NCBI GenBank assembly: GCA_958296105.1
Contig: OY282441.1
Coordinates: 248,001 to 312,000, forward strand
DNA: 64,000 bases
Direction: 5' to 3'
Source of the DNA: an uncultured Dehalococcoidia bacterium
GTDB lineage: Bacteria; Chloroflexota; Dehalococcoidia; Lucifugimonadales; UBA1123
Shown: positions 1,794 to 49,589 of the stretch, piece by piece
How the letters are laid out: each line of letters begins with the position of its first letter
Position numbering within the stretch: the stretch's first letter is position 1
The notes under the pieces: model-generated
What the model was told of the DNA's origin: nothing
Seen by the model: the letters and a program-made list of their open reading frames with translations, nothing else
The model's database searches: none
Translations under genes and position numbers: made by a program

Positions 1794-2628
1794 ATGGGAC
1801 TTTTGCAATCTTCCATCTATTCCCGTCACCGTCACCCCGCCGCGCGCACGAGAACCCACGCGCCTGCCCCATGTCCGGCATGGCTTCGGTGTCGCCGTGC
1901 CGTGTGCAGACCAGCGCTCCGCAGGAGTTGCCCAGCTCCAGCGCGCAGTGGACCTCGGGAAAGTCCGGATCCGGCAGGGCGCGACTTCGGACCACCATCT
2001 CCACCTCACCCATCCGCGCCATCGCGATGCGGTAGGCGGACTCGATTCGCTCGTCGGGGATGATATCGCAGACCCTGCTGCCCATGTCCACCGTCAGGAT
2101 CATGGCGTCCCGTGCCTTCCCGAACGCCGAGAAGGTGTACAGCGCCGCCTGCGTCACCACCTCCGTGCTGCTTCTCTCGACGACCAGCTCGCGCCAGCGT
2201 CGAAAGGCGTATGGCCCCCGCGTCTTGACCTCGATCACGACGTCGTCCAGTCCGCCCATGAAGGCGTCGTGACGCCCCTCCAGCATCTGCCCGCCGGCCT
2301 CGCTCCGGATCTGCCCGTTCTCGGCGTCCGCGTTCAGCCTGACCGTCCAGCCGTGTCCGGCCAGCCACTTCAGCGCCACCGGCTCCAGCGCCCTGCCCGC
2401 GTCCAGCATGATATGGGTGTCCGCGTCTAAGCGGCGGTCGGCGCGCGTCTCGCCCCTCACCGTGCGTTCGCAGCCCTCTCAGAACAGCGCGCGCCGACAG
2501 GCCGAGGCCGCCGCCGACATCCTGACGATAACCGTATCCGGGCTCTTCGCGCGCTTATCGTAGCCACGCAGCTCGATGTTCGGGCGCGCGTACACGCCGC
2601 CACCAGCGCCGTTGATTCCGTTGGTCAT
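1672..2628 (-). pseudogene. PD-(D/E)XK phage-type exonuclease, interrupted by one TGA
   Basis: From an ATG at 2628, preceded by a strong AGGAGGAG site, the frame reads about 49 residues to CRRALF and then meets a TGA at 2479-2481. The same frame continues without further stops. Downstream come a glycine-aspartate motif (GRHDAF) and DDVVIEVKTRG, the D...ExK catalytic core of PD-(D/E)XK exonucleases (YqaJ/Cas4/lambda-exo type), then a Cys-containing tail near residue 230. The first block resembles the CRRxLFxE start motif of these enzymes, and one TGG-to-TGA change would explain the stop. The C-terminal part runs into the protease gene on the other strand, so the true end is unclear. Its neighbours are annealing-protein and SSB relics, as in phage recombination modules. 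Confidence 0.6.
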
Positions 2629-2734
2629 CTGCGACCTCTCCTCCTGTGATCTCGCAGTTCGTCTTCCGCCGCGGCGAACATCTACGTATCAGGTACCGGG
2701 TGGGTTTGCGTTCGACGTCGAAAGCCCACGCGCC

Positions 2735-2766
2735 CTATCGGACTGAGTGGGTTTTGCTTGTCGTTA
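2735..2766 (+). terminator. hairpin with T run in the cassette A tail
   Basis: CCCAC and GTGGG pair around a loop containing CTATCGGACTG and are followed by TTTT. Related copies lie near 4327-4363 and 5790-5825, always next to the stronger minus-strand terminator of the coiled-coil gene. The cassette end therefore carries hairpins that could stop transcription from both sides. Confidence 0.45.
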
Positions 2767-2779
2767 GCTCAATGAACGC

Positions 2780-2817
2780 AAAAAGGGCCGGATGCCCCTT
2801 TCGGGAAACCTCCGGCC
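2780..2817 (-). terminator. Rho-independent terminator of coiled-coil gene A
   Basis: On the minus strand GGCCGGA and TCCGGCC form the stem with an inner CCC-GAAA-GGG hairpin, followed by TTTTT. It lies 33 bases past the stop codon of the gene ending at 2850. Near-identical copies follow genes B and C. Confidence 0.85.
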
Positions 2818-2849
2818 ATCGTGGATGGGTTGGTTATTCTGGACGGTGG

Positions 2850-3659
2850 CTAGTCCGCCTTGAACATCTGCGCGCGCAGCCTGTAGAAATGCGCCTCTTT
2901 CGAGTCGACTGCGTCCTGCGCGCGCCAGTTGACATTCATCCCGGATACGGCGGGGTAAGCGGGAAGACCCGTGAATCTGGTAAGCAGCCCAGCGTTGCGG
3001 ACGGCCCTTTCGATGTCCTTTGGATAGATCGTGTGCGAGACTTCCACGGAAACGTAGCAGTCCGCGCCCTCCGGGTCCGTGGCCAGTATGATTATGTCAG
3101 CGCCTTGGAAGCTGATCAGGTCGCTTTCGGAGATATCCGAGGTGTCGGCATCTTGCAGGATGTTGGCGAGGTCGGCTATGGAGAGAACAGACTTTATCCT
3201 GAATCCCATCCTCATCGGGATGAATGGGATGTGCCTGAGAGCTATCTCTCTGGCGTGGAAGCCCTTGATGTCGGCTACGTCATCGCGCAAGCCCTTGACG
3301 TCGGATTCGAGCGCCTCGAAGCGCGCGTTGGTGGACTCCATGAACCGCTGGAGGGTGTTCTCCGTGCGGAGCTGCGACTCTCGGAGCTCCCTGATAGCGG
3401 TCTCCTGCCGCGCTTGAGTCTCCAGGATCTGCGCGATGGCGGTCTCCTGCCGCGCTTGAGTCTCCAGGATCTGCGCGATGGTGGTCTCCTGCCGCGCCTG
3501 TGTCTCCAGGATCTGCGCCTGAACGGTCTCCAGCGTGTCGAACCTCTGCGGCAGCGCCAGCAGCTCGCTGGTCAGCAGACGCGCGCGAACCGCCTCCAGC
3601 CATTTCGGATTCTCGTCCATGACCCTGATGAAGTCTTCTATGGTGTCGATGGTTGCCAT
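2850..3659 (-). CDS. coiled-coil protein with nuclease-like C-terminal domain (cassette A)
   Basis: This 269-residue protein starts MATIDTIEDF. Residues about 40-110 are a coiled coil built from 14-residue repeats (ETQARQETAIAQIL). The C-terminal 130 residues form a compact domain with ADIIIL, then ADCYVSVEVSHTI. That layout resembles the D...ExK core of the restriction-endonuclease-like fold in DUF3782-type coiled-coil proteins, but with Ser where the Lys would be. The start at 3659 is chosen over an upstream ATG because paralogues B and C share the same MxTIxxIxDFIR start and because a GGAG precedes it. Function unknown. It is transcribed alone, with its own palindrome and terminator. It is cytoplasmic by lack of a signal peptide. 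Confidence 0.75.
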   Translation of the reverse strand: MATIDTIEDFIRVMDENPKWLEAVRARLLTSELLALPQRFDTLETVQAQILETQARQETTIAQILETQARQETAIAQILETQARQETAIRELRESQLRTENTLQRFMESTNARFEALESDVKGLRDDVADIKGFHAREIALRHIPFIPMRMGFRIKSVLSIADLANILQDADTSDISESDLISFQGADIIILATDPEGADCYVSVEVSHTIYPKDIERAVRNAGLLTRFTGLPAYPAVSGMNVNWRAQDAVDSKEAHFYRLRAQMFKAD

Positions 3660-44136: not shown

Positions 44137-44667
44137 TCAGCGACGCGCCATGAGAATAGCCAAGACGTCGGGCGCGGCTTTGGACGCCAGCCCCCTGAGC
44201 TGGGACATCGTGCGACTGCCGAGAGGGTGGGGGACTACCACGTAGGGATAGTCCGGCGCTCCCCCGAGCGCAGCCATCGCGTCCGCGCTGGTGACGAACG
44301 GCTCCGTGCAGATAACCGCCGTGGGAACGCCCCTGCGCTCCAGAGTAAGTCCGTCGTGCACACTGCACGACGAGCAAGACCCTCAATCACCGGACGACGT
44401 GATCACCACGTCGCACAGGTCGACCAGCTCGTCGATTATCTCCTCCGGGCATGGGCGCGATGCGTTGAGCTTGTTCCGCTCCACCACCTCCCCGAACTCG
44501 AACCTGTCCGCCAGCACGTCGTGAAGCGCAGTCAGCATCTCCTCCGAATTCAGCTTGCCGTTCGCCAGCAGGCCGACGGTCGCCCCGTCCAGCGAAGCCG
44601 GCCTGTCCGCTATCACCCCGTCCGCCGGAAGCGGAGCCACAGTTGGGTCGAGTACAATCGTTGACAT
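44137..44667 (-). CDS. UGSC-family selenoprotein (in-frame UGA = selenocysteine)
   Basis: Read through the TGA at 44383-44385, the gene encodes 176 residues. The N-terminal part (MSTIVLDPTVAPL ... LDGATVGLLANGKLNSEEM ... ELVDLCDVVITSSGD) is followed by Sec95-Gly-Ser-Cys, then SSCSVHDGLTLERRGVPTAV and ICTEPFVTSADAMAALGG. The U-G-S-C motif gives its name to the UGSC family, in which Cys or Sec occupies this place, so the TGA is in the expected spot and both halves match the family. A hairpin with features of a bacterial SECIS starts 10 bases after the UGA. The ATG has GGGAGG six bases upstream. It lies 42 bases after its partner gene. It probably has a thiol/selenol redox role, which is inference. 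Confidence 0.85.
44352..44372 (-). promoter_or_regulatory. SECIS-like hairpin
   Basis: On the coding strand CGTCGTGCA and TGCACGACG pair perfectly (9 bp) around a GTG loop, 10 bases after the UGA codon. The apical GTGCA-GTG-TGCAC resembles the upper stem-loop of E. coli fdhF SECIS (a GU in the loop, similar distance). Confidence 0.7.
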
Positions 44668-46184: not shown

Positions 46185-49100
46185 TCACCAGGCCGGGTCC
46201 CGATCAGACGCAGTATGATTCGTGAGACGGGTGACTCCCGAGCCATCCGCGTTCATCACGTAGATCTCATCGTTCCTGTCCCGACGAGACCGAAACGCTA
46301 TGTGCTGTCCGTCCGGAGACCAAGAGGGGGACAGATCCCGCGCAGTATGATTCGTGAGACGGGTGACTCCCGAACCGTCCGCATTCATCACGTAGATCTC
46401 ATCGTTCCCGTCCCGGCGAGACTCGAACGCTATGCGCCGTCCGTCCGGAGACCAAGCGGGGCGGCCATCCCGCGCAGTATGATTCGTGAGCCGCGTCACT
46501 CCCGATCCGTCCGCGTTCATCACATATATCTCATCGTTCCCGTCCCGACGAGAGACAAACGCTATGCGCCGTCCGTCCGGAGACCAGGACGGGTCATCAT
46601 CATTCTCACGATGATCCGTGAGCCGGGTGACGCCCTTGCCATCCGCATTTATCACGTATATATCGGGGTTCCCGTTCCGATAAGACTCGAACGCTATGCG
46701 CCGTCCGTCCGGAGACCAGGCGGGGTACCCATTATCCTCGGGAGTATTCGTGAGACGGGTGACTCCCGAACCGTCCGCGTTCATCACGTATATCTCGTAG
46801 CCCCCGTCCCGAGTGGACTCGAACGCTATGCGCCGTCCGTCCGGAGACCAAGCCGGGATGGTATCCACCCCACGATTATTCGTGAGACGGGTGACTCCCG
46901 AACCGTCCGCGTTCATCACGTATATCTCAGCGTTCCCGTCCCGAGTGGAGACAAACGCTATCTTCCCGGATGATGTGGGCGTGGGTGTGTGCGTCGGGGT
47001 CGGCGTGGGAGTCGGCGTGGGTGTGTGCGTCGGGGTCGGCGTGGGTGTGTGCGTCGGGGTCGGCGTGGGCGTGAGTGTAGGCGTCGGGGTCGGCGTGGGC
47101 GTGAGTGTAGGCACAGGCGTATGCGTAGGTGTGGGCGTGAGTGTAGGCACAGGCGTGGGTGTGTGCGTAGGGGTCGGTGTGGGCGTGTGCGTAGGTGTCG
47201 GCGTGGGCGAGGGGGTAGGCACAGGCGTGGGGGTATGCGTAGGTGTGGATGTGTGCGTAGGTGTCGGCACAGGCGTGTGCGTAGGTGTGGGTGTATGCGT
47301 GGGTGTCGGCGTCGGCGTATGCGTGGGGATAGGCATAGGCGAGACGTGTGTAGGCGTGTGCGTGGGTGTCGGCGTTGACGTGGGTGTCGGCGTATGCGTC
47401 GGAGTAGGCGTGGGTGTCGGCGTTGACGTGGGTGTCGGCGTAGTCGCAGGCGTATGCGTCACAACTCCTGCGCTTGTCCACCAGGCCGGGTCCCGATCAG
47501 ACTCAGGATGATCCGTGAGACGGGTGACTCCCGAACCGTCCGCGTTCATCACGTAGATCTCATCGTTCCAGTCCCGACGAGAGGTAAACACTATGCGCCG
47601 TCCGTCTGGAGACCAGGACATGGGGGCCCCATCCCACGCAGGATGATCGGTGAGCCGCGTCACTCCCGAACCATCTGCGTTCATCACGTATATATTCCTG
47701 TTCCCGTCCCGATCAGAAGTAAACGCTATCTGCCGTCCGTCCGAAGACCAGGCGGGGTACCCATCATTCTCAGGATGATCCGTGAGACGGGTGACTCCTG
47801 AACCGTCCGCGTTCATCACGTAGATCTCGGGGTTCCCGTCCCGACGAGAGACAAACGCTATACGCTGACCGTCCGGAGACCAAGACGGGTCATCGTCATT
47901 CTCAGGATGATCCGTGAGACGGGTGACTCCCGAACCGTCCGCGTTCATCACGTAGATCTCGGGGTTCCCGTTCCGATAAGACTCGAACGCTATGCGCCGA
48001 CCATCCGGAGACCAAGCGGGGTACCCATTATCCTCAGGAGTATCCGTGAGACGGGTGACTTCAGAACCGTCCGCGTTCATCACGTATATCTCGTAGCCCC
48101 CGTCCCGAGTGGACTCGAACGCTATGCGCCGTCTGTCTGGAGACCAAGCCGGGATAGTATCCACCCCAGGATGATCCGTGAGACGGGTGACTTCAGAGCC
48201 GTCCGCGTTCATCACGTAGATCTCATCGTTCCCGTCCCGAGTGGAGACAAACGCTATCTTCCCGGATGACGTGGGCGTGGGTGTAGGCGTGTGCATCACA
48301 ACGCCTGCACTTGTCCACCAGGCCGGGTCCCGATCAGACTCAGTATGATCCGTGAGACGGGTGACTCCCGATCCGTCAGCGTTCATCACGTATATCTCAT
48401 CGTTCCAGTCCCGACGAGAGGTAAACGCTATGCGCCGTCCGTCCGGAGACCAGGACATGGGGGCCCCATCCCACGCAGGATGATCGGTGAGCCGCGTCAC
48501 TCCCGAACCGTCTGCGTTCATCACGTATATATTCCTGTTCCCGTCCCGATCAGAAGTAAACGCTATCTGCCGTCCGTCCGAAGACCAGGCGGGGTACCCA
48601 TCATTCTCAGGATGATCCGTGAGACGGGTGACTCCCGAACCGTCCGCGTTCATCACGTAGATCTCGGGGTTCCCGTCCCGACGAGAGACAAACGCTATAC
48701 GTTGACCGTCCGGAGACCAAGACGGGTCATCATCATTCTCAGGAGTATCCGTGAGACGGGTGACTCCCGAACCGTCTGCGTTCATCACGTATATCTCGGC
48801 GTTCCCGTTCCGATAAGACTCGAACGCTATGCGTCGACCGTCCGGAGACCAAGCGGGGTACCCATTATCCTCGGGAGTATCCGTGAGACGGGTGACTTCA
48901 GAGCCATCAGCGTTCATCACGTATATCTCGTAGCCCCCGTCCCGAGTGGACTCGAACGCTATGCGCCGTCTGTCCGGAGACCAAGCCGGGATAGTATCCA
49001 CCCCAGGATGATCCGTGAGACGGGTGACTTCAGAGCCGTCCGCGTTCATCACGTAGATCTCATCGTTCCCGTCCCGAGTGGAGACAAACGCTATCTTCCC

Positions 49101-49358
49101 GGATGACGTGGGCGTGGGTGTAGGCTGAGCTGGGGCTGCGGGCTGAGCCGGGGGTGTAGGCTGAACTGGGGCTGCGAGCTTTTCGACCTCGGTGACGACG
49201 GTTCTAACTACGTCTTGCTCGGCTACCACAGGAGAGGAGCTCGCGGGGGGGGGGGGGGGGGTAGGTAGGGGATCCTGCGCGCACGCGACGGCGAAGACAA
49301 CGGTCAGCATGAGGGAGAGGGCTTTCGGAATTCGACCTCTTCCAGCAAGCTGATTCAT
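46185..49358 (-). CDS. TolB-like propeller-repeat lipoprotein, 18 PD40 repeats
   Basis: This protein of about 1057 residues begins [20 protein letters not shown] then VFAVACAQ, a lipoprotein signal. A Pro run encoded by a 17-base homopolymer and a TPTPT spacer follow. Next come three blocks of six PD40/WD40-like repeats ([19 protein letters not shown], then [18 protein letters not shown]), each block the right size for a six-bladed TolB propeller. Blocks 1 and 2 are an 837-bp near-exact duplication. Blocks 2 and 3 are separated by a 150-residue Thr-Pro stalk (47450-46970). The protein is probably anchored outside the membrane and binds other proteins or polymers. The start codon directly abuts an IS end whose AAGG would serve as the ribosome site. 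Confidence 0.85.
46970..47450 (-). repeat. Thr-Pro stalk low-complexity repeat
   Basis: About 480 bp of irregular GTGGGCGT/GTGTGCGTAGG-type 6-12-base repeats encode (TP/TH)n, for example [17 protein letters not shown]. It links propeller blocks 2 and 3 and is likely to vary in length between strains. Confidence 0.85.
47461..49134 (-). repeat. 837-bp tandem intragenic duplication
   Basis: The two propeller blocks at about 47461-48297 and 48298-49134 match nearly base for base at an offset of 837 (exactly 279 codons). The copies differ only by scattered substitutions. Confidence 0.85.
49245..49261 (-). repeat. 17-base G/C homopolymer inside the lipoprotein gene
   Basis: Seventeen consecutive G on the plus strand (C on the coding strand) encode a proline run just after the lipoprotein signal. 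A change of one base shifts the frame and truncates the product, the usual design of a slipped-strand contingency locus. Confidence 0.85.
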
Positions 49359-49360
49359 TC

Positions 49361-49589
49361 TGACCTTACGCAGTCTTGAGTAGCTGGAGTTCGTCGAAGG
49401 CATGGCAGATGTCCCTGAGATATATGCGGGTTCTAAGCGAGAAGTGACGCAGCCAGTGTCTCACACTAAGCCATTCCAAGCAACAGACCGAAACGAGCTT
49501 GGCAGATAGTCTCCATGTAGTACAGTTCCAGCAGCTCTTTGTTCATGGCTCGAGGGCAGCATCTGCTTCGGTTTGTGCGTAAGATCAGT
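49361..49589 (-). mobile_element. internally deleted IS4-superfamily element, right copy
   Basis: The terminal inverted repeats TGACCTTACGCA (49361-49372) and TGCGTAAGATCA (49576-49587) match in 11 of 12 positions. Inside, the minus strand has the transposase C-terminus ([20 protein letters not shown] then [11 protein letters not shown]) fused by deletion to the N-terminus (MNKELLELY region). The transposase core is gone, so it could move only in trans. Its left end sits two bases before the lipoprotein start codon. Confidence 0.75.

What the first reader, a model, noticed from the sequence alone, without database searches (positions are those of the whole stretch)
44137..44667. Selenoprotein hidden behind an in-frame UGA: UGSC family with SECIS-like hairpin
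The UGA falls exactly at the U of the UGSC motif. The frame continues for 81 conserved-looking codons to a normal stop. A perfect 9-bp hairpin with a GU-containing loop begins 10 bases after it. Standard gene calling would split it into two hypothetical genes.
Basis: partly seen in the sequence, partly recalled or inferred. Interest (0 to 1): 0.85.

Follow-up and report, generated by a model that had tools for sequence, protein, structure and literature searches.

The report
UGSC-family selenoprotein with obligate partner gene
One gene that looks broken by a stop codon is in fact a selenium-containing protein of a known but functionally unexplained bacterial family, and it travels everywhere with a neighbouring gene that no family database searched here has yet named.

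Summary
Window 44667..44137 (minus strand) is a 176-codon UGSC-family gene with an in-frame UGA at codon 95, the U of U-G-S-C. Both halves match the same family profile in register. A 9-bp hairpin starts 10 nt after the UGA and meets the published bacterial SECIS rules. The same single-contig genome holds tRNA-Sec(UCA), selA, selB and selD, and two more UGSC paralogues with TGA at the same site. In 60 genomes of the order, 79 of 81 matches hold exactly one in-frame TGA; 15 of 16 distant loci carry Cys there. Coding constraint continues after the UGA and the SECIS stem shows compensatory changes. So it is a genuine selenoprotein, but of a family known since 2008. UGSC and partner occur in the same 29 of 60 genomes, and the partner is next to UGSC in all 16 distant loci. 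Most likely they form a GrdB-like two-part reductase; its substrate is unknown.

The parts
44137..44667 (-). UGSC-family selenoprotein gene, 176 codons plus terminal TGA
   Evidence: PF24696 3.2e-56; NF041046 145.4 bits, above cut-off; SD-like GGGAGG just upstream of the ATG
44383..44385 (-). in-frame UGA read as selenocysteine (Sec95, U of UGSC)
   Evidence: 79 of 81 matches in relatives have exactly one TGA and no other stop; Cys at this site in 15 of 16 distant loci
44352..44372 (-). bacterial SECIS hairpin, 9 bp, GUG loop, starts 10 nt after the UGA
   Evidence: fold -17 kcal/mol; 4 of 8 stem pairs with two-sided changes, covariation score 0/500 shuffles; meets model in PMC13188914
44710..45744 (-). 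companion gene, 344 aa, 42 nt upstream in the same direction; no Pfam or NCBIfam family
   Evidence: next to or fused with UGSC in 28 of 32 order-level loci and all 16 distant loci; same 29 of 60 genomes; no family model
44137..44139 (-). terminal UGA, read as stop
   Evidence: family profile ends 2-3 residues earlier; no fold better than chance after it (z -0.31)

Best explanation
The gene makes an 18-kDa selenoprotein. SelB with Sec-tRNA(Sec) reads UGA at codon 95 as selenocysteine, guided by the hairpin that begins 10 nt downstream (supported by comparative evidence). The protein is a stand-alone version of the Sec-bearing domain of the GrdB/PrdB reductase family: Sec95 lies at the start of a helix after a strand of a Rossmann/flavodoxin-like fold, with resolving Cys98 in a UxxC motif (homology and predicted structure computed here; chemistry inferred). 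It works together with the companion protein encoded directly upstream, as one two-part enzyme: the companion probably shapes the substrate site, and the Sec selenolate attacks or reduces the substrate and is reset through a Sec-Cys bond by a thioredoxin-reductase-like or thioredoxin donor (inferred). Substrate unknown. The selenoprotein reading alone is about 0.98 likely; the confidence given here is for the whole mechanism.
For: Sec decoding: tRNA-Sec 66.2 bits with anticodon TCA, selB 329.7 bits, selA 524 bits, selD 379 bits with its own TGA in a SCAGUASK context. Two paralogues with TGA at the same place. 79 of 81 matches in the order keep TGA; 27 of the 29 UGSC genomes have selA and the two exceptions are 81-83% complete. 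dN/dS 0.05-0.23 after the UGA, 0.09-0.33 before it. Compensatory changes in the stem. Two-part enzyme: identical presence pattern in 60 genomes, adjacency, and fusion in the genome's own paralogue L011, 32% identical to the companion. GrdB kinship: TIGR01917 6.1e-6 over residues 70-155; hhalign E 1.1e-5, probability 82%, Sec aligned with Sec. Structure pLDDT 89.9. A Pyr_redox_2 flavoprotein gene sits directly after UGSC in L053.
Against: No expression, mass-spectrometry or selenium data. Kinship to GrdB is only moderate (82% probability, about 100 residues). The flavoprotein neighbour was seen in one locus. The companion has no clear fold match and no family model links it to the GrdE/PrdA partner, so 'GrdB-like reductase' is an analogy. 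The genome's second UGSC (L010) has no companion next to it.
Confidence: 0.55

Rival explanations
1. It is a selenoprotein as described, but it acts as a general thiol redox protein (thioredoxin- or peroxiredoxin-like), as the 2008 authors suggested, and the companion is its redox client.
For: UxxC motif; [quoted passage not shown]
Against: The confident model has a Rossmann/flavodoxin-like order of strands and helices and its listed structure matches are flavodoxin, receiver-domain, PurE and LarB types; kinship is to GrdB.
Confidence: 0.25
2. Sec95 or its neighbours bind a metal or cofactor and the pair is a non-redox enzyme, such as a lyase or hydrolase.
For: The companion's weak best fold matches are class I fumarase and cyclic amide hydrolases.
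Against: These matches are at noise level (Z under 5, TM at most 0.30); invariant C98 beside Sec suggests redox cycling.
Confidence: 0.1
3. Pseudogene or sequencing error: the UGA is a true stop.
For: None beyond the ordinary reading of the codon.
Against: Same TGA in dozens of genomes, full Sec machinery, purifying selection after the UGA, SECIS covariation.
Confidence: 0.01

Closest known systems
UGSC family (seleno)protein, NCBIfam NF041046 / Pfam PF24696; UGSC-containing protein of the Global Ocean Sampling study (PMC2398784)
   Same: Full-length match above curated cut-offs, UGSC motif with Sec, bSECIS, Sec and Cys members, fusion with an unnamed domain in some members
   Different: No essential difference; here the fold is modelled, the GrdB link is shown, and the partner's strict co-occurrence is measured
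GrdB / glycine-betaine-sarcosine reductase selenoprotein B (TIGR01917, TIGR01918, PF07355)
   Same: About 100 residues around Sec align, Sec to Sec; the window protein has U-x-x-C-x-x-C, as the literature gives for GrdB (PMC13188914, PMC6778437)
   Different: Lacks the roughly 320 residues in front of the Sec domain; far below the family cut-off; different partner; five of the six GrdB-like tails read in relatives have UGTSTRSG without that Cys

Membership tests
UGSC family (seleno)protein (NF041046 / PF24696) | whole-protein profile score above curated cut-off | tested here: met
   145.4 vs 125 bits; 190.6 vs 25 bits
UGSC family (seleno)protein (NF041046 / PF24696) | Sec or Cys in the U/C-G-S-C motif | tested here: met
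   in-frame TGA at codon 95; Cys in distant homologues
Bacterial selenoprotein gene | Sec machinery in the same genome | tested here: met
   tRNA-Sec, selA, selB, selD
Bacterial selenoprotein gene | bSECIS: apical loop 3-9 nt, upper stem 4-16 bp, G in first two loop positions, 16-37 nt from UGA, energy at most -7.5 kcal/mol | tested here: met
   loop GUG (or A-GUG-U), 9 bp, G first, 19 nt from UGA, -17 kcal/mol (model from PMC13188914)
Bacterial selenoprotein gene | Sec physically present in the protein | not testable with these tools
   needs 75Se labelling or mass spectrometry
GrdB (TIGR01917 / PF07355) | whole-protein score above curated cut-off | tested here: not met
   25.4 vs 602.2 bits, only residues 70-155 match; no PF07355 match in Pfam scan
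GrdB (TIGR01917 / PF07355) | homologous Sec domain | tested here: met
   hhalign E 1.1e-5, probability 82%, Sec on Sec
Thioredoxin-fold selenoproteins | thioredoxin fold | tested here: inconclusive
   model pLDDT 89.9 is Rossmann/flavodoxin-like and none of the listed best matches is a thioredoxin, but an unlisted fold is not excluded

The most novel reading that the evidence does not exclude
UGSC and its unnamed companion are the two subunits of an undescribed class of selenium-dependent reductase, built from a minimal GrdB-type Sec domain and a new partner fold, spread over several bacterial phyla in Sec and Cys forms and present in up to five copies per genome in this order.
Probability: 0.35. 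Interest if true: 0.6.

Novelty: new member of a known kind. Interest (0 to 1): 0.33.

Why it matters
UGSC proteins are among the most abundant selenoproteins in aquatic metagenomes (255 sequences in GOS, PMC2398784), yet in the literature read here their function remains uncharacterised. An obligate partner and a link to glycine/proline reductases give a concrete target for biochemistry: co-express the two and look for a reductase. It also shows that plain ORF calling would split dozens of such genes in this lineage.

Tried and rejected
Sequence search of the PDB with the UGSC profile gave only non-credible hits, and none for the companion. Companion against Pfam and NCBIfam: nothing credible. 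Companion fold: best Foldseek E 5.9e-3 with TM at most 0.30, best Z 4.9, so no fold claim is made. No thioredoxin-fold entry appears among the listed UGSC structure matches. Readthrough of the terminal UGA was rejected: the fold after it is no better than shuffles and the family ends there. Gene neighbourhoods of named Cys-type loci were mostly unrelated; only the flavoprotein in L053 was suggestive. Paper searches for 'UGSC family' and for SAR202 with selenoprotein found nothing.

Full report
Observation. On the minus strand, the frame from ATG 44667 to TGA 44137 has one in-frame TGA at 44385-44383 (codon 95 of 176); 81 codons follow it. The standard ORF list splits it into 94 and 74 aa. Read through, it matches Pfam UGSC (3.2e-56) and NCBIfam NF041046 (145.4 bits, cut-off 125). 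The two halves on their own match consecutive parts of the same profile (positions 1-68 and 77-146).

Is the UGA read as selenocysteine? The genome is one contig of 3.18 Mb. It has a tRNA-Sec with anticodon TCA (66.2 bits), SelB (329.7 bits), SelA (524 bits) and SelD (379 bits), all over the curated cut-offs. SelD itself has an in-frame TGA (..SLASCAGUASKF..). There are two more UGSC paralogues, each with one TGA at the motif.

Relatives. In 60 genomes (the window's own plus 59 of the same genus, family and order), 29 have UGSC. Of 81 matches, 79 have exactly one TGA and no other stop, one has a TGA and two TAG, and one weak partial match has none. selA is in 27 of the 29; the other two, G006 and G030, are bins 83% and 81% complete. 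Outside this group, 16 loci were found with a pattern that requires a Cys codon in the motif. In the alignments the best UGSC match reads Cys at the window's UGA position in 15 of them, from Actinomycetota, Chelatococcus, Binatia and a deltaproteobacterial bin; in a Myxococcales bin it again reads a stop, SD*GACTSW. That scan was biased towards Cys forms and says nothing about their frequency.

Constraint. Against nine relatives, dN/dS is 0.09-0.33 before the UGA and 0.05-0.23 after it, and changes pile up at third codon positions on both sides. Synonymous sites are near saturation in several pairs, so the ratios are rough, but a decaying tail is excluded.

SECIS. The hairpin at 44372-44352 has 9 bp and a GUG loop (or A-GUG-U with A-U pairing). 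The loop starts 19 nt after the UGA and the 41-nt fold is -17 kcal/mol, with 2 of 200 shuffles as good. It meets all four conditions of the published bacterial model as given in PMC13188914. Over 30 distinct sequences, four of eight tested stem pairs show changes on both sides (for example C-G to G-C at the innermost pair in five sequences), with covariation score 0.125 against 0.041 in shuffles and 0 of 500 reaching it. Related sequences inflate that control, but the slid versions (at most 0.068) also fall short. The inner pairs are kept in nearly all sequences; the outer pairs are looser.

The terminal UGA. The gene also ends in UGA. The fold after it is no better than shuffles, and Pfam UGSC is matched to position 171 of 172 by then. 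In most relatives the terminal stop is TAG or TAA.

The companion. A 344-aa gene (45744-44710) lies 42 nt upstream in the same direction. It has no Pfam or NCBIfam family even with 28 relatives scanned. It is adjacent to or fused with UGSC in 28 of 32 order-level loci and in all 16 distant loci. A profile of it finds exactly the same 29 of 60 genomes as UGSC, and the same 31 lack both. In the genome's third UGSC paralogue the two are one reading frame, UGSC first, 32% identical to the stand-alone companion. The 2008 GOS paper had noted a UGSC/Unknown_1 fusion; whether Unknown_1 is this protein could not be checked, because its supplement was not read.

Fold and kinship. The UGSC model (pLDDT 89.9) alternates strands and helices in a Rossmann/flavodoxin-like way; Sec95 sits just before helix 96-111, after strand 87-91. 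Structure matches are of the flavodoxin, receiver-domain, PurE and LarB type with middling Z (best 11.1), so they show a common arrangement, not a function. By sequence, residues 70-155 match GrdB (TIGR01917 6.1e-6). A profile comparison with five GrdB-like selenoproteins from relatives gives E 1.1e-5, probability 82%, with Sec aligned to Sec. The companion model (pLDDT 88.5) has no convincing fold match.

Mechanism. Shown by comparison: a conserved Sec-coding gene with a covarying SECIS, in a genome with full machinery, tied to a companion. Inferred: Sec95 with Cys98 as a redox pair in a two-part reductase that works like GrdB, with the companion in the place of the GrdE/PrdA partner. A Pyr_redox_2 flavoprotein directly after UGSC in Chelatococcus (L053) fits an electron donor, but it is one case. 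The substrate is not known.

Verdict. The protein belongs to a family known since 2008 with curated models, so the finding is a new member of a known kind. The part worth carrying forward is the unnamed obligate partner and the GrdB link.

Noticed in passing
L010 minus strand, about 2023-3069 (own genome near position 1,863,000): A lipoprotein-like ORF with a TlpA/thioredoxin-like domain has an in-frame TGA in FFATFUGTCRSEL, followed by a stem-loop with an AGUUG loop: another likely selenoprotein, next to the second UGSC paralogue.
   Followed up: partly
L020 (own genome 539652-540569): selD is itself a selenoprotein gene, with TGA in SLASCAGUASKF.
   Followed up: partly
G003:C2:979027-979476: A UGSC copy in a same-genus genome has one TGA and two TAG inside: probably a decayed or frameshifted copy.
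   Followed up: no
G000:C1:2621283-2622335: The third companion gene of the genome lies far from the second UGSC (1863015), so this pair is not linked on the chromosome.
   Followed up: no
window 46185-49403 (minus strand): A 1072-aa protein of repeated TolB/WD40-like blades ([16 protein letters not shown]) with long Thr-Pro tracts and duplicated segments.
   Followed up: no
G004, G005, G006, G007 (same family): Many GrdB-like selenoprotein genes (4 to 10 matches per genome) in family members, none in the four genomes of the window's genus; five of the six tails read here carry UGTSTRSG instead of UGTC.
   Followed up: partly
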